From Halopelagius longus (GTDB lineage Archaea > Halobacteriota > Halobacteria > Halobacteriales > Haloferacaceae), in assembly GCF_900100875.1 (NCBI RefSeq), contig NZ_FNKQ01000003.1, positions 124,001 through 188,000 on the forward strand: DNA of 64,000 nucleotides, given 5' to 3'. Shown piece after piece: positions 8,513 to 53,088 of the stretch (its first letter is position 1; the number at the start of each line of letters is the position of its first letter). The translations under genes were made by a program, and so were the position numbers. Below the pieces are notes generated by a model. That model did no database searches and was not told the DNA's origin. It saw only the letters and a list, made by a program, of their open reading frames with translations.

Positions 8513-9413
8513 GGAATCAGACGTCCTGTACCACGTCAACGGCGAGTTGGTGCCCGCCGACGAGGCGACGGTGAGCGTCCGCGACCGGGGATTCACGTAC
8601 GGCGACGCGGCGTTCGAGACGCTCCGAGCCTACGGCGGCGAGGCGTTCCGGTGGGGATCGCACGCCGACCGCCTCCGGGAGACGTGCGACGTTCTCGCGT
8701 TAGACCACGGCCTCTCCGATTCGGACCTGAAGGCTCGGGTGGACGAGACCCTCCGAGCGAACGAACTCGACGACGCATACGTCCGACTGTCCGTCACGCG
8801 GGGCGTCCAGCCGGGGAAACTCACGCCTGACGAGGCGGTGGACCCCACCGTCGTCGTCGTCGTGAAACCCCTGCCGCGGGGCGGGCGCGGAAGCGACCCC
8901 GTGTGGGACGCCCCGGCGTCGTTGCAGACGGTGAAGACGCGGCGCGCCCCCGACCGGTCGATTCCGGCGCGGGCGAAGACGCACAACTATCTCAACGGCA
9001 TCCTCGCCCGTTTGGAACTCCGCGTTACGGACGCCGACGAGGCGGTGATGCTCGACGCCGACGGCCACCTCGCGGAGGGGGCGACGAGTAACCTGTTTTT
9101 CGTCCGCGAGGACGCCCTCTGTACTCCGTCGCTCGACGGTCCCGTACTGCCGGGCGTGACGCGCGCAGAAGTTCTCGACATCGCCGCGGCGGAGGATATC
9201 CCGGTTCGTGAGGGGACGTTCACCCCCGACGACCTACGAAACGCGGCGGAGGCGTTCGTCACGAACACGACGTGGGAGGTGCGACCCGTCGAGTCGGTTG
9301 ACGGCATCGACGTGGGCGGCGGCCCGGTGACGACGCTCATCTCCCGCGTGTTCGACGACCGAGTGGAACGAGAACACTACGCAGACGACGCGACGGAGCC
9401 GAACGGGCAATAA
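8505..9413 (+). CDS. pabC: Class IV aminotransferase, probable aminodeoxychorismate lyase
   Basis: A 302-residue PLP fold-type IV enzyme. Typical features are the N-terminal RDRGFTYGDAAFETLRAYGG, the PLP-lysine region RAKTHNYLNGILA and the later EGATSNLFF phosphate-binding loop. The family includes branched-chain aminotransferases and aminodeoxychorismate lyase. I favour the lyase (releasing pyruvate to give p-aminobenzoate) because the gene overlaps pabA by 8 bp and completes the pabB-pabA-pabC set. The ATG at 8505 gives a standard N-terminus. Confidence 0.85.
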   Translation: MSEESDVLYHVNGELVPADEATVSVRDRGFTYGDAAFETLRAYGGEAFRWGSHADRLRETCDVLALDHGLSDSDLKARVDETLRANELDDAYVRLSVTRGVQPGKLTPDEAVDPTVVVVVKPLPRGGRGSDPVWDAPASLQTVKTRRAPDRSIPARAKTHNYLNGILARLELRVTDADEAVMLDADGHLAEGATSNLFFVREDALCTPSLDGPVLPGVTRAEVLDIAAAEDIPVREGTFTPDDLRNAAEAFVTNTTWEVRPVESVDGIDVGGGPVTTLISRVFDDRVEREHYADDATEPNGQ

Positions 9414-9459
9414 ATTCGAAGACCGTCAGCTTTTGAACACGCCGACTCGGAAGGCGGGT

Positions 9460-9870
9460 ATGGACGACTCGCGCCGAATCGCCGCCGCCGACGAGGTGCC
9501 CGAAGACGGCACGCTTCTCTTCACCGTCTCGGAGGACGGCGACCGGACGGAGGCCATCCTCACGCGCCTCGACGACGGGACCATCGCGGCGTTCTCGAAC
9601 TACTGCCCCCATTGGACGGACGTGCGACTCGACAAGGGGTCGGGTGCGCTGGTCCGGAACGGCGAACTCGTCTGCCAGAAACACGGGGCGACGTTCGAAC
9701 GCGACTCGGGGGTCTGTAACTTCGGCCCCTGCGAGGGCGCGGTGTTGGAGACGATCGACGTGACCGTCGAGGAGGGGTCCGTGCTGTTGACCGACGACGA
9801 CTACGCGTTCGAGAACCTCGGCGCGTCGCAGGAGTACGACCGCTCCTCGGGCAACCAAATCGGGTTTTAG
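9460..9870 (+). CDS. Stand-alone Rieske [2Fe-2S] protein
   Basis: A 136-residue soluble Rieske ferredoxin-like protein. The two cluster motifs are visible: Cys49-Pro-His51 and Cys72-Gln-Lys-His75. Two further cysteines (86 and 91) follow. There is no signal peptide or membrane anchor, so it is likely a cytoplasmic electron carrier or the ferredoxin part of an oxygenase, not part of a bc1 complex. No oxygenase or reductase gene lies nearby. The ATG at 9460 is preferred to an in-frame TTG at 9433. Confidence 0.82.
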   Translation: MDDSRRIAAADEVPEDGTLLFTVSEDGDRTEAILTRLDDGTIAAFSNYCPHWTDVRLDKGSGALVRNGELVCQKHGATFERDSGVCNFGPCEGAVLETIDVTVEEGSVLLTDDDYAFENLGASQEYDRSSGNQIGF

Positions 9871-9898
9871 ACGGCTCTTGTGCGGGATTCGGTCCGAT

Positions 9899-10237
9899 TC
9901 AGCCGCTCGTTTCCGTCACGCCGGGACCGACCGACGCGTAGTTGACGACGACGAACGCGACCAAGAGAACTACCGCGAGTGCCGCGAACGCGAGCGATGC
10001 GGTGCGTCGGCCCGCCGCCGAGAGACCGAGGCGGCCGCCGACCCGTTCGGTCGCGAGTAGCGCCGACAGTAGCAACGAGAGGCCGATAGCCGCAATCCAT
10101 GCGCCCCCGAGCGCAGACCCGGGAACGAGGAGCAGACCATAACCGAACACCGCCATCCCGACGACGACGGCCAACACGACGCCGACGAGGAACAACCCGC
10201 CGGATGAAGCCGACTCGGCCGATTCACTAGTAGTCAA
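9899..10237 (-). CDS. Small hypothetical membrane protein
   Basis: A 112-residue protein with a polar Ser/Thr/Glu-rich N-terminus (1-12) and three or four hydrophobic segments (about 13-38, 43-62 and 80-102). I recognise no family motif. It converges on the Rieske gene with a 28-bp gap. High third-position GC and an uninterrupted membrane pattern support a real gene; function unknown. Confidence 0.6.
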   Translation of the reverse strand: MTTSESAESASSGGLFLVGVVLAVVVGMAVFGYGLLLVPGSALGGAWIAAIGLSLLLSALLATERVGGRLGLSAAGRRTASLAFAALAVVLLVAFVVVNYASVGPGVTETSG

Positions 10238-10328
10238 GCGTAAACGTACGGCGTCTGACAGGATAACCGTTGCGTGACCGCCGAGGCGCGAAACTCGTCG
10301 CTCTGAGGTGTCGTGTTCGGCAAAACCA

Positions 10329-10403
10329 TAGCGGGAGGTAGATTTGAACTACCGATCTCCGGGTTATGAGCCCGGCGGAATCTCCTGGCTATCCCATCCC
10401 GCT
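10329..10403 (-). tRNA. Initiator tRNA-Met (anticodon CAU)
   Basis: Read on the minus strand, a 75-nt cloverleaf begins AGCGGGATGGGATAGCCAGG and ends GTTCAAATCTACCTCCCGCT plus discriminator A. The anticodon is CAU. Initiator features are clear: an A1-U72 pair, and three G-C pairs at the bottom of the anticodon stem (GGG at 29-31, CCC at 39-41). The CCA end is not encoded. No intron is seen. Confidence 0.96.
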
Positions 10404-10473
10404 ACATGTCTCAAACTCCGGCTGACGGTTAAGGGTTATGTTTCGGCCGCCGTATGCGAATTTCCACCGTTCG

Positions 10474-10923
10474 TCACGGCCGAGAGATGCGCCACGTGAA
10501 CGTGCTCTCGGCGACGTAGTTCACAAGCATCGAGGCGGCGATGGCAATCGGAATCGGGATGACCTGCCAGAAGTCGAAGCCGAACACGATGACCGACAGG
10601 TCGAGTTGGCGAAGCGACCGGACGATGAAGAACTGGAGGGCGAGGCCGCCGCTTCTGACGAGGTTGGAGGTGAGAAAGCGCCGAATCGTCGGGAGCGTTC
10701 CGCCCGCGCCCTCGTCGGCGAACGTCCAGTTCTCGTTGATGACGAACATGACGATGATCGCGACTTCCGCGCCGACGAGCTTCGCGTACTCGCCGAGGAC
10801 GCCGAGGAGGACGATGAGCGCCGTCGTCGTCGTCATGTCGAAGACTGCGCCCACCGCACCGACGGAGACGAACTTGCCGAAGCGAACGCCCGAGAAGAGG
10901 GCGTCGAAGGAACGGTTGCTCAT
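10474..10923 (-). CDS. GtrA-like family membrane protein
   Basis: A 149-residue protein with four hydrophobic helices (about residues 15-38, 43-62, 83-105 and 115-140) and the GtrA pattern: FGKFVSVGAVGAVFD near the N-terminus, FVINENWTF in the middle and a final VNYVAESTFTW. GtrA proteins are thought to help move lipid-linked sugars across the membrane. It starts 2 nt after the stop of the GT2 gene, so the two are almost certainly co-transcribed and act together. Confidence 0.85.
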   Translation of the reverse strand: MSNRSFDALFSGVRFGKFVSVGAVGAVFDMTTTTALIVLLGVLGEYAKLVGAEVAIIVMFVINENWTFADEGAGGTLPTIRRFLTSNLVRSGGLALQFFIVRSLRQLDLSVIVFGFDFWQVIPIPIAIAASMLVNYVAESTFTWRISRP

Positions 10924-45691: not shown

Positions 45692-46789
45692 ATGGTATCA
45701 ATAGACATGGATACGGAAGACGGGCAACGGGAGGTACTCCGGCGCATGCTCACCATCCGGGCGTTCGACGACAAGGTGGGCGAACTGTTCGAGGACGGCG
45801 AACTGCCCGGGTTCGTCCACCTCTACATCGGCGAGGAGGCGGTCGGCGTGGGCGCGGCGGCGGCGTTGGAGGACGAGGACCTCATCGCCTCGACGCACCG
45901 GGGTCACGGCCACTGCATCGCCAAGGGACTCGACCCCGAGGGGATGATGGCCGAGGTGCACGGCAAACAGAAGGGCTACTGCAACGGCAAGGGCGGGTCG
46001 ATGCACATCGCCGACGTGGACGCCGGGATGCTCGGCGCGAACGGCATCGTCGGCGCTGGCCCGCCGTTGGCGACGGGCGCGGCCCTCTCGGCGCAGATGC
46101 GCGACTCCGAGCAAGTGGCGCTTGCGTTCTTCGGCGACGGGGCCGTCGCGCAGGGGCAGGTCCACGAGGCCATCAACCTCGCGGCGACGTGGGACCTCCC
46201 GGCCGTCTTCCTCGTCGAGAACAACAAGTTCGGCGAGGGGACGCCCGTCGAGAAACAGCACAACATCGAACACCTCAGCGAGACGGCGGAGGCGTACGAC
46301 ATTCCGGGGTTCACCGTGGACGGGATGGACGTCGTCGCGGTGAACGAAGCGGTCAGGGAGGCCCGCGAACGCGCCGCGAACGGCGAGGGGCCGACGTTCA
46401 TCGAGGCCGACACCTACCGCTTCCGCGGCCACTTCGAGGGCGACCACCAACCGTACCGCGACGAGGAGGACATCGGCGAGTGGCGCGAGGGCCGCGACCC
46501 GATACAGAACTTCAAGAACCGCCTGTTGGAGGCGGGCACCATCGACCAAGACGAGTTCGAGTCGATGCGCGAGGAGGCCAGAGAGCGGATAGACGAAGCC
46601 GTCGAGGCCGCACAGGCGGCCGACGACCCGGCCCCCCACGAGGCGTACGAGGACATGTTCTCGATGCACGTCCCGGACATCGACCGATTCGCGCGGTCCG
46701 CCGCGACGGACGGCGGGCGGAACCACGGAGGTGCCGACGACGAGTCGGCAGCACGTCAGACGCAGTCTGACGGAGGTGAGAGCCGATGA
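45692..46789 (+). CDS. Acetoin/2-oxoacid dehydrogenase E1 subunit alpha
   Basis: A 365-residue thiamine-diphosphate subunit. The ThDP motif runs from GDG (148-150) to NN (177-178), with QGQVHEAINLAATWDLPAVF between. Segments GKQKGYCNGKGGSMHIAD and GLDPEGMMAEVHG resemble AcoA of acetoin dehydrogenase and pyruvate dehydrogenase E1 alpha. It decarboxylates or cleaves its substrate and passes an acyl group to lipoyl-E2. A TATA-like CGTTTATGA lies at about 45653-45661. Its stop overlaps the E1 beta start (ATGA). Confidence 0.9.
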   Translation: MVSIDMDTEDGQREVLRRMLTIRAFDDKVGELFEDGELPGFVHLYIGEEAVGVGAAAALEDEDLIASTHRGHGHCIAKGLDPEGMMAEVHGKQKGYCNGKGGSMHIADVDAGMLGANGIVGAGPPLATGAALSAQMRDSEQVALAFFGDGAVAQGQVHEAINLAATWDLPAVFLVENNKFGEGTPVEKQHNIEHLSETAEAYDIPGFTVDGMDVVAVNEAVREARERAANGEGPTFIEADTYRFRGHFEGDHQPYRDEEDIGEWREGRDPIQNFKNRLLEAGTIDQDEFESMREEARERIDEAVEAAQAADDPAPHEAYEDMFSMHVPDIDRFARSAATDGGRNHGGADDESAARQTQSDGGESR

Positions 46790-47796
46790 GCACCGAATCA
46801 CGACCCGGCGACGGCGTAGACCAGACCGAGACGATGACGATGCGGGAGGCCATCAGGGCGGCCCTCCGCGAGGAGATGCAGGACGACGAAAACGTGTTCA
46901 TCATGGGCGAGGACGTCGGCGAGTTCGGCGGCGTCTTCAGCGTGACGGACGGCCTCGTCGACGAGTTCGGCGAGGACCGCGTCCGCGACACGCCCATCAG
47001 CGAGGCCGGATTCACGGGCGCGGGCGTCGGCGCCGCCGCCACGGGGACGCGCCCCGTCGTCGAGATAATGTTCTCGGACTTCCTCGGCGTCGCCTCCGAG
47101 CAGATAATCAACCAGATGGCGAAGATGCGCTACATGTTCGGCGGGAAGACGGAGATGCCCATCACCGTCCGCACCACCGAGGGCGGCGGGATGGGCGCGG
47201 CCAGTCAACACTCCGGCACCCTCCACACGTGGTTCGCGCACTTCCCCGGACTCCTCGCCGTCGCGCCGGGCACGCCGCGGGCCGCCAAGGGCCTGCTCAA
47301 GTCGGCCATTCGCTCGGACGACCCGGTGTTCTTCTTCGAGAACAAGATGATATACGAACGGGAGGGCGAGGTGCCGGTGGATCCCAACTACACCGTTCCA
47401 CTCGGGCAGGCGAGCGTCGAACGAGAGGGCGAGGACGTCACCGTCGTCGCCACCCAGCGCATGGTCGGCGAATCGCTGGACCTCGCCGAGGAGATGGCGG
47501 GACAGGCGAGCGTCGAGGTCATCGACCTCCAGTCGCTGTACCCCCTCGATACGGACACCTTGGTCGAGAGCGTCGAGAAGACCGGTCGCCTCGTCGTCGC
47601 CGACGAGAGCCCCCTCTCGTACGGCACGCACGCCGAATTGATGGCCCGCGTGATGGAGGACGGCTTCTACAGTCTCGACGCGCCGCCGATGCGCGTCGGC
47701 GTGGCCGACACCCACATCCCGTTCAGTCCGACCTTAGAGCAAGAGGTCGTCCCGTCCGCAGAGGACGTGCGAAGCGCGGTGGAGAAACTGGTGTAG
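46786..47796 (+). CDS. Acetoin/2-oxoacid dehydrogenase E1 subunit beta
   Basis: A 336-residue transketolase-like subunit with TMREAIRAALREEMQDDENV, FIMGEDVGEFGGVFSVTDGL, TPISEAGFTGAGVGAAATG and EVIDLQSLYPLDTDTLVES. It forms the alpha2-beta2 E1 with the previous gene. The ATG overlaps the E1 alpha TGA by four bases, so translation is coupled. It is followed 1 bp later by an AcoX-like gene, which favours an acetoin-type substrate over pyruvate, an inference from context. Confidence 0.92.
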   Translation: MSTESRPGDGVDQTETMTMREAIRAALREEMQDDENVFIMGEDVGEFGGVFSVTDGLVDEFGEDRVRDTPISEAGFTGAGVGAAATGTRPVVEIMFSDFLGVASEQIINQMAKMRYMFGGKTEMPITVRTTEGGGMGAASQHSGTLHTWFAHFPGLLAVAPGTPRAAKGLLKSAIRSDDPVFFFENKMIYEREGEVPVDPNYTVPLGQASVEREGEDVTVVATQRMVGESLDLAEEMAGQASVEVIDLQSLYPLDTDTLVESVEKTGRLVVADESPLSYGTHAELMARVMEDGFYSLDAPPMRVGVADTHIPFSPTLEQEVVPSAEDVRSAVEKLV

Positions 47797-47797
47797 C

Positions 47798-48796
47798 GTG
47801 ACCGCCCGCGTCGGACTGGTCGTCAACCCCGCGGCGGGGCGCGACATCCGCCGCCTCACCGGCGGGGCGAGCGTCAGCAACAACTACGCCAAGCGCCGCA
47901 CCGCCGAGTGCGTCCTCGCCGGCGTCGGCGTCGTCGAGGGCGCGGAGGTACTCGCGATGCCCGACGCCTCCGGCATCGCGGAGCGAATCCTCGATTCGGC
48001 CCCCGACGGCGTCGAGACGGGACTCCTCGACTTCGCACCGGCGGGCGGTCCCCGGGACACGCGCCGCGCGGCCGAACGCTTCCGAGAGGCGGCCGACGCG
48101 GTGGTCGTCCTCGGCGGCGACGGGACGAACCGCGACGCGGGGACGAGCGTCGGCGACGTGCCCCTCGTCTCCGTCTCGACGGGGACGAACAACGTCGTCC
48201 CGACGGCGGTGGACGGCACCGTCGCGGGGATGGCCGCCGCAGTCGTCGCCGACGGCGCGGCGGACGCGAAAGCGGTCAGTTACCGACACGGAACCGCAGT
48301 CGCCGAGGTGGACGGACGCACCGGCCGCGAGACGGTCACGGGCCTCGCCACCGTCGGCGTCGTGGACGAGGCGTTCGTCGGGACGCGCGCCCTATTGGAC
48401 TCCGAGAGCCTCCTCGGGGGCGTCGCCTCCCGCGCCGCCCCCGGCGAGATAGGCGTCTCCGGCGCGGCGGGGGCCGTCCACCGCGTCGAACCCGACGAGT
48501 CCGGCGGCGTCGGAATCCGATTCGCGCCCGCGGGGGAGGCGTCGCGCCGCGTCCGCGCCGTCACCGTCCCCGGCGTCGTCTCCGAACTCGGCGTCGCGGA
48601 GTGCCGCCGACTCGACGCCGAGGAGTCGTTCGCCTTCGAGGTTGAGACGGCCGTCGTCAGCGCCGACGGCGAACGCGAACTGGAGGTCCGCGACGCCGAA
48701 ATCGCGGTTCGTCCGGCGGACGACGGCCCGCGCATCGTGGACGTGGACGCCGCACTCGCCGCCGCCGCGGAGGAGGGGTTCTTCGTCGGAGAGTAG
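47798..48796 (+). CDS. AcoX-like ATP-NAD-kinase-fold protein
   Basis: A 332-residue protein. The N-terminal half has the ATP-NAD kinase fold with VGLVVNPAAGRDIRRL and the GGDGT motif at 106-110, then STGTNNVVPTAVDGT (about 128-142). Bacterial acoX, of unsettled function, sits in acetoin operons with acoA and acoB. The same order is seen here, starting with GTG one base after the E1 beta stop. It may help thiamine- or NAD-linked cofactor supply or act on a side-product; whether it has NAD kinase activity is unknown. Confidence 0.8.
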   Translation: MTARVGLVVNPAAGRDIRRLTGGASVSNNYAKRRTAECVLAGVGVVEGAEVLAMPDASGIAERILDSAPDGVETGLLDFAPAGGPRDTRRAAERFREAADAVVVLGGDGTNRDAGTSVGDVPLVSVSTGTNNVVPTAVDGTVAGMAAAVVADGAADAKAVSYRHGTAVAEVDGRTGRETVTGLATVGVVDEAFVGTRALLDSESLLGGVASRAAPGEIGVSGAAGAVHRVEPDESGGVGIRFAPAGEASRRVRAVTVPGVVSELGVAECRRLDAEESFAFEVETAVVSADGERELEVRDAEIAVRPADDGPRIVDVDAALAAAAEEGFFVGE

Positions 48797-50202: not shown

Positions 50203-52032
50203 TCACGCCCGCCGCCAGTCTAGGGAGACCGGCAGGTCCTCGCGGAGGAGTTCGTTGACGTGGCAGGTTCGCTCACCGTTACGGACGATGCGTTCCACCC
50301 TCTCCTCGTCGGCGTCGGTGTCGAGCACCGCGGTTAGCGAGATGGACTCGACGGACCCCTCCGGCGGCGTCGCTTCCGCCTCGACGGTGACGTTCCGCAC
50401 GTCCGCGTCGCGGATGTCCGCTTGGACGCCGATGCTCGCGGAGAGGCAGGCCGCCAGCGAACTGACGAACAGGTCCACGGGCGTCGGCGCGGTGCCGCCG
50501 CCGAACTCCTCGGTCACGTCGAAGTCGTACTCGAACGACCCCGCTTCGACGGTGCCCTTCAGGTCGGGGCCGACGGACGCCGTCGCCGTCGCTTCGGGGA
50601 GTTCTACGGATTCGGGTTCGGTCGCCTCCACCCCCTCTAAGAGGGGCCACGGGTCGTCGAGGTGGTCGGAGAGAGTGGCCATGAACCGCGCCGCGTCCGC
50701 CCCGTCCACGACGCGGTGGTCGAACGACAGGTCGAGGGGGAGCATCCGACGGACGGTGAAGTCGCTCCCCGACTCGTCCGGAACGACCCGTTCTTCGACG
50801 GCGTTGACGCCGAGGATGGCCACCTGCGGCGGGTTGATGACCGGGTCGAACGACTCCACCCCGAGGACGCCGAGATTCGAGACGGTGAACGTCCCCCCCG
50901 AGAGGTCGTCCATCGAGTAGTCGCCGTCGAGGACGCGTCGGGTCACCTCCCGGCGCGTCTCGGCGAGTTCCGAAAGCGAGAGCGAATCGACGCCGCGGAC
51001 GACGGGTGCGAGCAACCCCTCCTCGACGTCGACGGCGACGCAGACGTTCTGCTCCTCGTGGAGGCGGTGGGTGTCGTCCCGGAAGGTGGCGTTGAACTCC
51101 GGATGCTCAGCGAGCGTCGCCGACAGCGCCTTCAGGAGGATATCCGTCAGCGACACGTCCGTCCCGAGTTGCTCTCCTGCGGCGTCCGCCGCCGCGAGGG
51201 CCGCCTCCGCGTTCGTCGTTCGGTGGACGGTGACGTGGACGGACTCGCGGTAGCTCTTCCCGAGTCTGTCGGCGATGGTGCGGCGCATCCCCGACAGTGT
51301 TCGCTCCTCGCTGACAGCCGGTTCGGCGGATTCGCCGGCCGCCGCCTCACCACCGGACTCCGCGGCCGCCTCGACGTCGTTCTCCGTGATTGCGCCGCCC
51401 GGACCGGACCCCTCGACGCGTCCGATATCGACGCCGAGTTCGTCGGCGCGCTTTCTCGCCCGGGGGCTGGCCTTCACGTCCTCCTCGTCGCCGGTGCCGC
51501 CGGATTCCGCCGCCGCCTTGACGTCCGCTTCCGTAATCGCGCCGTCGGGACCCGACCCCTCGACGCTCCCGACATCGACGCCGAGTTCGTCGGCGCGTCG
51601 CTTCGCCCGCGGACTGGCTTTCACGTCCGCCGCGGAACCCGAACCGGTGCCGCCGCCGGAGTCCGCGGCCGTCGCTCCCCTATCTCCGCCCGTCTCTGCG
51701 CCCGAATCCGCCGTCTCCGCCTCCTCCCCCGCGTCGGGTGCGCCCTCGACGGCCCCCGCCTCGAAGTCGGCCATCAGCGAGGAGATGTCCTCGTCGGCGC
51801 CGCCGACGATGCCGAGTGCGGCCCCCGGCGGGACGGACTCGCCCGCCTCGACGCCGACGTGCCTGAGGACGCCCGACTCCCGCGCGTCTATCTCCGCCGT
51901 CGTCTTCTCGGACTCTATCTCCGCGACGGGTTCGTCCGCCGTCACCTCCTCGCCCTCCTCCGCGAACCACTCCACGACCGTTCCGGAATCCATCTCCAGC
52001 CCTAACTTGGGCATCTTGACGACGTACGACAT
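50203..52032 (-). CDS. 2-oxoacid dehydrogenase E2 fused to a C-terminal OsmC domain
   Basis: A 609-residue protein with five parts. Residues 1-78: lipoyl domain, with lipoyl-Lys43 in IESEKTTAEID. Residues 137-176 and 186-225: two tandem peripheral-subunit-binding domains, each VKASPRA, RADELGVD, VEGSGP, GAIT. Residues 240-462: acyltransferase with the catalytic FDHRVVDG (His439, Asp443). Residues about 480-609: an OsmC-type domain with PVDLFVSSLAACLSAS (Cys529) and ERTCHVNELL (Cys590), spaced 61 residues like the peroxidatic/resolving pair of Ohr/OsmC proteins. A usual E2 ends soon after HRVVDG. It is opposite in strand to the E1 operon with two genes between. No E3 is seen. Start chosen at MSYVVKMPKLGLEMDSG. 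Confidence 0.9.
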   Translation of the reverse strand: MSYVVKMPKLGLEMDSGTVVEWFAEEGEEVTADEPVAEIESEKTTAEIDARESGVLRHVGVEAGESVPPGAALGIVGGADEDISSLMADFEAGAVEGAPDAGEEAETADSGAETGGDRGATAADSGGGTGSGSAADVKASPRAKRRADELGVDVGSVEGSGPDGAITEADVKAAAESGGTGDEEDVKASPRARKRADELGVDIGRVEGSGPGGAITENDVEAAAESGGEAAAGESAEPAVSEERTLSGMRRTIADRLGKSYRESVHVTVHRTTNAEAALAAADAAGEQLGTDVSLTDILLKALSATLAEHPEFNATFRDDTHRLHEEQNVCVAVDVEEGLLAPVVRGVDSLSLSELAETRREVTRRVLDGDYSMDDLSGGTFTVSNLGVLGVESFDPVINPPQVAILGVNAVEERVVPDESGSDFTVRRMLPLDLSFDHRVVDGADAARFMATLSDHLDDPWPLLEGVEATEPESVELPEATATASVGPDLKGTVEAGSFEYDFDVTEEFGGGTAPTPVDLFVSSLAACLSASIGVQADIRDADVRNVTVEAEATPPEGSVESISLTAVLDTDADEERVERIVRNGERTCHVNELLREDLPVSLDWRRA

Positions 52033-52146: not shown

Positions 52147-53088
52147 ATGTCCGGCAAGATGGCAGACTTCGACGGATTCGCGGACGTCAGCGAGGCACAG
52201 GTCACACGAGCGATAGCGACCGACTGGACCGAGGAGTTCCTCGACAGGATAGACACGGAGGTAATCGTCGTCGGCGGCGGGCCGTCGGGCCTCGTCGCGG
52301 CGAAGGAACTGGCCGAACGCGACGTGGACGTCACCATCGTCGAGAAGAACAACTACCTCGGCGGCGGGTTCTGGCTCGGCGGGTTCCTGATGAACAAGGT
52401 GACCGTCCGCGACCCGGCCCAAGAGGTACTCGACGAACTGGGCGTCCCCTACACCGAGAGCGAGGAGGCCGAGGGACTGTACGTCGCCGACGGGCCCCAC
52501 GCCTGTTCCGGCCTCATCAAGGCCGCCTGCGACGCGGGCGCGACGGTCCAGAACATGACGGAGTTCACGGACATCGTCGTCCGCGACGGCCACCGCGTCG
52601 GCGGCGTCGTCCTCAACTGGACGCCCGTCCACGCCCTGCCGCGCGAACTGACGTGCGTGGACCCCGTCGCCGTCGAGTCGGACCTCGTTCTCGACGCGAC
52701 GGGCCACGACGCCGTCGTCATCTCGAAACTCGCCGAACGCGGCGCACTCGACGCGCCGGGCATCGAACACGCCCAAGAGCACAACACCGGCATGGACCAG
52801 ACCGACGAGGGCGAGTACGGCGCGCCCGGCCACGACTCGCCCGGCCACGACTCCATGTGGGTCGGAAAGAGCGAGGACCAAGTGGTCGAACACACCGGCG
52901 TCGTCCACCCGGGCGTCGTCGCCTCCGGGATGGCCGTCGCCACCGCCCACGGCCTCCCGCGGATGGGACCGACGTTCGGCGCGATGCTCCTCTCGGGCAA
53001 GCGCGCGGCGCAGTCCTGCCTCGACGAACTCGGCCGCGACGCCCCGGCCGTGGAGTACGGCGCGACGCCCTCGCCCGCCGACGACTGA
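52147..53088 (+). CDS. thi4: Thiazole synthase Thi4 (ADP-thiazole synthase)
   Basis: A 313-residue enzyme that makes the thiamin thiazole precursor from NAD+ and glycine. The dinucleotide-binding [17 protein letters not shown] begins near residue 41. A Cys at 170, in [14 protein letters not shown], matches the sacrificial sulfur-donor Cys of yeast and haloarchaeal Thi4. Methanogen enzymes with His there use free sulfide. So this copy probably uses its own Cys as sulfur source. A second near-N-terminal ATG (codon 5) is possible. The promoter carries a possible ThiR site. Confidence 0.92.

What the first reader, a model, noticed from the sequence alone, without database searches (positions are those of the whole stretch)
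50203..52032. E2 acyltransferase fused to an OsmC-type peroxidase domain
The 609-residue E2 carries, after a complete catalytic domain (His439, Asp443), an extra 130-residue OsmC domain with both characteristic cysteines (529 and 590). Bacterial Ohr/OsmC peroxidases are known to take electrons from lipoylated proteins and lipoamide dehydrogenase. In this protein the lipoyl arm (Lys43) and the peroxidase sit in one chain, so reduced lipoyl groups could directly feed hydroperoxide removal. That would be a self-protecting, or redox-gated, 2-oxoacid dehydrogenase complex. I know of no described system of this kind; novelty itself needs a search.
Basis: partly seen in the sequence, partly recalled or inferred. 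Interest (0 to 1): 0.88.

Follow-up and report, generated by a model that had tools for sequence, protein, structure and literature searches.

The report
Haloarchaeal dehydrogenase E2 fused to OsmC
In many salt-loving archaea, the core protein of a 2-oxoacid (or acetoin) dehydrogenase complex carries an extra two-cysteine OsmC domain at its end, so the protein's own lipoyl arm could feed electrons to peroxide removal or a redox switch, though no activity has been measured.

Summary
It encodes a 609-residue E2: lipoyl domain (Lys43), two E3-binding domains, catalytic domain with His439/Asp443, and a C-terminal OsmC domain with Cys529 and Cys590. It is not a frameshift. I found the same fusion in 32 of 292 sampled Halobacteria genomes (20 genera, 4 families). 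Both OsmC cysteines are invariant in all 32; they are 2 of only 4 invariant columns in the domain. The fused OsmC domains form one clade, and the E2 tree fits one fusion followed by several losses. One genome carries the same OsmC as a separate gene beside E1-alpha.

Known lipoyl-dependent peroxidases (Ohr, OsmC) make the electron path plausible. But the domain lacks the Glu (Val in 31 of 32) and the Arg of Ohr and resembles the uncharacterised YhfA class. The only OsmC-fused enzyme found tested (an OsmC esterase) showed no peroxidase activity. One genome has lost the lipoyl lysine yet keeps both cysteines. Two genomes keep the fusion without the cognate E1.

Best reading: a lipoyl-linked thiol oxidoreductase module, probably a hydroperoxidase, about 50%. 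I found no description of the fusion in the papers searched.

The parts
50203..52032 (-). E2-OsmC fusion gene, 609 aa, ATG at 52032; an upstream in-frame GTG would give 622 aa
51814..52020 (-). lipoyl domain, residues 5-73; lipoyl Lys43 at 51904-51906 (motif ESEKTTA)
51514..51624 (-). first E3-binding (peripheral subunit-binding) domain, residues about 137-173
   Evidence: Pfam E3_binding, 2 stretches; repeat of the VKASPRA motif
51370..51477 (-). second E3-binding domain, residues 186-221
50638..51309 (-). E2 acyltransferase catalytic domain, residues 242-465, His439 and Asp443 in SFDHRVVDGAD
   Evidence: Pfam 2-oxoacid_dh E 4e-65; E2 core structures as Foldseek top hits
50206..50592 (-). OsmC domain, residues 481-609 (Pfam core 511-604); Cys529 at 50446-50448, Cys590 at 50263-50265
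45692..46789 (+). E1 alpha subunit, 365 aa
   Evidence: Pfam E1_dh E 1e-96; syntenic with E2 in most relatives
46786..47796 (+). E1 beta subunit, 336 aa
47798..48796 (+). AcoX-like protein with an NAD-kinase N-terminal domain, 332 aa; third gene of the E1 operon. The name AcoX is from operon position and fold, not from a dedicated model
   Evidence: Pfam NAD_kinase E 1.8e-9; no NCBIfam hit; conserved order E1a-E1b-AcoX
52147..53088 (+). Thi4-family thiazole synthase, divergent neighbour (thiamine supply for E1); same neighbour in unfused g7 loci

Best explanation
This is a genuine, selected E2 subunit of a haloarchaeal 2-oxoacid (or acetoin) dehydrogenase complex with a C-terminal OsmC module. 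Most likely the OsmC module is a two-cysteine thiol oxidoreductase served by the lipoyl arms of the same complex. Cys529 reacts with a hydroperoxide (or another sulfur-oxidising substrate), forms a disulfide with Cys590, and the disulfide is reduced by dihydrolipoyl-Lys43, which is re-reduced by E1 plus substrate or by E3 plus NADH. Shown here: the fusion, its conservation, the two invariant cysteines, the OsmC fold (as a model), and the presence of E3 and lipoylation genes in the genome. Inferred: disulfide formation, lipoyl-dependent reduction, and the identity of the oxidant (organic hydroperoxide is the leading guess).
For: 32 fused proteins in 20 genera keep both Cys while the domain falls to 29-59% identity outside the closest orthologue; only P52, C63, P90 and C124 of the domain are invariant. 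The fused OsmC domains plus the detached L098 copy form one clade apart from free OsmC proteins. High-confidence OsmC model, best structural matches YhfA 1ml8 (Z 15.5, rmsd 1.9) and Ohr/OsmC structures, including dihydrolipoamide-bound Ohr 6ebg/6ebd. Lipoyl Lys kept in 31 of 32 and catalytic His in 32 of 32. Own genome has E3 (TIGR01350 E 1.6e-163), LipA and LplA/LipB-family genes. Two genomes keep the fusion although the cognate E1 is gone (best E1-beta 48-50% identity versus 57-80% in the other genomes tested); G213 of these keeps the lipoyl Lys, which fits an E1-independent E3/NADH route. Known precedent: Ohr and OsmC take electrons from lipoylated E2/E3 (PMC4486171, PMC8945050).
Against: The Ohr Glu is Val in 31 of 32 and the Ohr Arg is not conserved, so the domain is not a canonical Ohr/OsmC; NCBIfam places it nearest OsmC_like_Se but below the cut-off. 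OsmC-fused esterases, whose family appears to hold the second-best profile match in the PDB (9wo1, 400 aa), showed no peroxidase activity (PMC5113044). G029 (L071) lost the lipoyl Lys and still keeps both Cys. Unfused orthologues with the same E1-AcoX operon do without the domain.
Confidence: 0.5

Rival explanations
1. Redox gate: the OsmC cysteines form a regulatory disulfide that senses oxidants or the lipoyl redox state and switches E2 catalysis or core assembly, with little peroxidase turnover.
For: The module sits directly after the catalytic domain. The Ohr-type catalytic Glu and Arg are absent while both Cys are invariant. [quoted passage not shown]
Against: The linker between catalytic and OsmC domains varies in length and sequence and is modelled with lower confidence than the domains, which is unlike a tight allosteric joint. 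In L098 (G192) the same OsmC is a separate gene and the adjacent E2 lacks the catalytic His motif.
Confidence: 0.2
2. OsmC module with another chemistry or role not dependent on the lipoyl arm, for example small-molecule or acyl-hydroperoxide binding, or dimerisation; the cysteines serve a non-peroxidase reaction, as appears to be the case in OsmC esterases.
For: L071 (G029) keeps OsmC with both Cys and the E2 catalytic motif after losing the lipoyl Lys and the cognate E1. No peroxidase activity in EstRM (PMC5113044). YhfA-class proteins have no known activity (PMC8945050).
Against: 31 of 32 fused proteins keep the lipoyl Lys. Two invariant Cys in the Ohr positions are hard to explain for a purely structural role. 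L071 is a single genome and may be a decaying gene.
Confidence: 0.25
3. Chance fusion or passive passenger: one ancestral joining event carried along with no special function.
For: Several lineages have lost the domain with the rest of the complex intact.
Against: dN is far below dS in the OsmC part in all six pairs tested. Both Cys are invariant over deep divergence. The domain survives detached in L098 next to E1-alpha.
Confidence: 0.05

Closest known systems
Ohr/OsmC lipoyl-dependent peroxidases reduced by SucB/PDHB/LpdA (X. fastidiosa, C. glutamicum; PMC4486171, PMC8945050, PMC5962072)
   Same: OsmC fold, two cysteines at the same places, lipoylated E2/E3 as the presumed electron source.
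   Different: There the peroxidase is a free small protein with a catalytic Arg and Glu; here it is part of the E2 chain and lacks both.
YhfA-class OsmC proteins (E. coli YhfA, PDB 1ml8)
   Same: Two cysteines without the Ohr Arg and Glu; joint best structural match (Z 15.5, rmsd 1.9). That 1ml8 is YhfA is from my own knowledge (the entry says 'crp region').
   Different: Free protein of unknown activity; only 17% identity; sequence profile match weak (E 1e-4).
OsmC-domain carboxyl esterases (EstRM family; PMC5113044; probably PDB 9wo1)
   Same: C-terminal OsmC domain with both cysteines on a metabolic enzyme; 9wo1 is the second-best PDB profile match (E 1.4e-11).
   Different: Partner is an alpha/beta hydrolase without a lipoyl group; no peroxidase activity was found.
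Mycobacterial AhpC-AhpD-lipoyl E2-Lpd peroxidase (summarised in PMC8945050)
   Same: E2 lipoyl groups and E3 drive peroxide reduction.
   Different: Separate proteins, AhpD as adaptor, peroxiredoxin instead of OsmC.
Acetoin/2-oxoacid dehydrogenase complexes of haloarchaea (Haloferax OADHC1-3; PMC8305020)
   Same: E1 alpha, E1 beta, E2; HVO_0669/0668 are 54/47% identical to B. subtilis acetoin dehydrogenase E1 subunits; no substrate identified directly (isoleucine indirectly for one).
   Different: No OsmC domain described there.

Membership tests
2-oxoacid dehydrogenase E2 (dihydrolipoamide acyltransferase) | Lipoyl domain with lysine, E3-binding domain, catalytic domain with His and Asp | tested here: met
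   all present, E3-binding domain twice.
2-oxoacid dehydrogenase E2 (dihydrolipoamide acyltransferase) | Genetic link to E1 alpha and beta | tested here: met
   E1a-E1b-AcoX at 45692-48796, conserved synteny in most fused loci.
2-oxoacid dehydrogenase E2 (dihydrolipoamide acyltransferase) | Acyltransferase activity; lipoylation of Lys43 | not testable with these tools
   LipA and LplA/LipB-family genes are in the genome; modification not shown.
OsmC superfamily (Pfam PF02566) | OsmC fold and Pfam score above cut-off | tested here: met
   55.6 bits versus cut-off 27.5; model pLDDT 92.5, Z 15.5 to 1ml8.
Ohr/OsmC peroxidase (canonical) | Two conserved cysteines | tested here: met
   32 of 32 fused proteins.
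Ohr/OsmC peroxidase (canonical) | Catalytic Glu (Cys-10) and Arg | tested here: not met
   Val in 31 of 32 at the Glu position; Arg position variable. An acid at Cys-9 is conserved in 32 of 32.
Ohr/OsmC peroxidase (canonical) | NCBIfam Ohr or OsmC model above its cut-off | tested here: not met
   TIGR03561 25 bits versus 88.85; TIGR03562 17 versus 85.8.
YhfA-class OsmC protein | Two Cys present, Ohr Arg and Glu absent | tested here: met
   class definition from PMC8945050. Phylogenetic membership in the class was not tested.
Lipoyl-dependent peroxidase | Hydroperoxide reduction driven by dihydrolipoyl groups | not testable with these tools
   Needs an enzyme assay.
Acetoin dehydrogenase (Aco) system | E1 homologous to AcoAB with AcoX in the operon; acetoin as substrate | tested here: inconclusive
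   AcoX-like NAD-kinase-fold gene follows E1 beta; NCBIfam calls E1 and E2 PDH-like, mostly below cut-off; substrate unknown.

The most novel reading that the evidence does not exclude
A dehydrogenase complex with a built-in lipoyl-driven hydroperoxidase of the YhfA type: the swinging arm delivers electrons either to E3/NAD or to the OsmC centre, making the E2 core a self-protecting NADH (or 2-oxoacid):hydroperoxide oxidoreductase, and in some lineages (G213) one that works without E1.
Probability: 0.35. Interest if true: 0.82.

Novelty: new variant of a known kind. Interest (0 to 1): 0.63.

Why it matters
Lipoyl groups of E2 are known to support peroxidases only as separate, diffusing partners. 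A covalent fusion kept over 20 genera would be strong genomic evidence that this electron route is physiological, and it gives a tractable test of what YhfA-class OsmC domains do, which is unknown. It may also point to a redox function of haloarchaeal 2-oxoacid dehydrogenase complexes, whose substrates are largely unidentified.

Tried and rejected
Frameshift or assembly artefact: rejected (32 single open frames). Canonical Ohr: rejected on the missing Glu and Arg and on low model scores. Free OsmC in the unfused genus g7 as the detached partner: rejected, it branches outside the fused clade. Two dN/dS scripts failed on a bad motif and were repeated.

Full report
Check of the observation. The interval 50203-52032 read on the minus strand is one open frame of 609 residues; the plus strand is not. 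Pfam finds a lipoyl domain (5-73), two E3-binding domains, the 2-oxoacid dehydrogenase acyltransferase domain (242-465) and OsmC (511-604), all above gathering scores.

Surroundings. Convergent with the E2 gene lies an operon E1 alpha - E1 beta - AcoX-like (45692-48796, plus strand); about 1.4 kb with at least one unrelated ORF separates them here. Divergent from E2 lies a Thi4-type thiazole synthase (52147-53088). The same E1a-E1b-AcoX order next to E2 is found in most relatives. The operon looks like an acetoin-dehydrogenase-type system, but NCBIfam gives only pyruvate-dehydrogenase-like names, mostly below cut-off, so the substrate is unknown. Haloferax OADHC substrates are also mostly unknown (PMC8305020). 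The genome holds another E1-E2-E3 cluster with a genuine lipoamide dehydrogenase, LipA and two LplA/LipB-family genes, so lipoylation and an E3 are available.

How widespread. I searched 292 Halobacteria genomes with the whole protein and fetched 60 loci: 58 from other genomes and two further stretches of the own genome. Counting the window, 32 proteins carry catalytic plus OsmC domains in one frame; all 32 match both Pfam models. They fall in 20 genera of 4 families by the tool's codes. In 197 genomes spread over the phylum none outside Halobacteria spans both domains.

Evolution. In a tree of OsmC domains, the 32 fused ones and one free protein (L098, genome G192) form a clade (SH-aLRT 91) and the other free OsmC proteins lie outside; L098 is nested inside, next to a fused relative. 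In L098 the OsmC is a 192-aa gene directly upstream of E1 alpha, so it is best read as a detached copy. In the E2 catalytic tree, fused and unfused proteins need 6 changes (bootstrap range 5-7). With the single OsmC clade, one fusion and several losses (or transfers) is the simplest reading; losses include a whole genus (g7). The direction at the deepest unfused clade (f8) is not resolved, and several fused rows are long branches whose place is unsure.

Constraint. Among 32 domains only four columns are invariant: Pro, Cys, Pro, Cys; both Cys correspond to Cys529 and Cys590. The third cysteine of the window protein occurs in 10 of 32. dN is far below dS in the OsmC part in six pairs.

Which OsmC. 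The model of the domain has mean pLDDT 92.5, with Cys63 (=529) inside the long first helix and Cys124 (=590) at the break of the second. Best structural matches are 6d9n and 1ml8 (E. coli YhfA; Z 15.5, rmsd 1.9 for 1ml8), then other Ohr/OsmC entries, including Ohr bound to dihydrolipoamide. In alignments with Ohr the catalytic Glu at Cys-10 is Val in 31 of 32; the Arg position is variable; instead an Asp/Glu at Cys-9 is in 32 of 32 and an Arg two residues before the second Cys in 31 of 32. Two cysteines without Arg and Glu is how PMC8945050 describes the YhfA class, whose activity is not known.

Mechanism. Ohr and OsmC disulfides are reduced by lipoylated SucB/PDHB and LpdA (PMC8945050; kinetics in PMC4486171). 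A fusion of exactly these parts makes intramolecular or intra-complex electron transfer the leading hypothesis. Natural variants bear on it both ways. In G213 (L050) the cognate E1 is absent from the genome (best E1-beta 48% identity) but the lipoyl Lys and OsmC remain, which fits an E3/NADH-driven role. In G029 (L071) the cognate E1 is absent too (best 50%), and the lipoyl domain has decayed (ESEK aligned to ESGE) while His, Asp and both Cys stay, which argues that the OsmC part can be kept without the arm, unless this single gene is decaying. An OsmC-fused esterase had no peroxidase activity (PMC5113044), a caution against assuming function from two cysteines.

Verdict. Real, conserved and apparently undescribed in the searched literature; a new variant of a known kind. 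Mechanism: lipoyl-linked thiol oxidoreductase about 50%, of which a true hydroperoxidase about 35%; redox gate 20%; other role 25%; passive passenger 5%.

Noticed in passing
L091, L092, L094, L096, L097, L100 (family f9) and L098 (G192): E2-like proteins beside the same E1-AcoX operon keep the lipoyl and E3-binding domains but have lost the catalytic DHRxxDG motif (for example YDTRVLGD): apparently pseudo-E2s; in L098 this goes with a detached OsmC gene.
   Followed up: partly
L096:13917-15530 (-): 537-aa protein with lipoyl domain, E3-binding domain and what reads as an alpha/beta hydrolase domain, next to the E1 operon and to a pseudo-E2; resembles the AcoC (PRK14875) architecture.
   Followed up: no
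L071 (G029) 9188-10618 (-): Fused E2-OsmC whose lipoyl domain has decayed (lipoyl Lys lost) in a genome without the cognate E1, while the E2 and OsmC active-site residues are intact.
   Followed up: partly
L050:8201-8851 (-): A second OsmC-family gene (216 aa, lacking the resolving cysteine) lies directly downstream of the E2-OsmC fusion in a genome without the cognate E1; a similar gene is at L060:18161.
   Followed up: partly
window 51370-51624: The E3-binding domain is duplicated (residues 137-173 and 186-221, VKASPRA...), also in several relatives (apparently three copies in L084).
   Followed up: partly
window 52147-53088 and L072-L076, L087: A Thi4 thiazole synthase gene is divergent from E2 in the window's genus and in unfused genus g7, a possible link between thiamine supply and the ThDP-dependent E1.
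   Followed up: no
L069, L070, L101, L102: OsmC is also fused to E2s of a second, AcoX-less type of 2-oxoacid dehydrogenase complex.
   Followed up: partly
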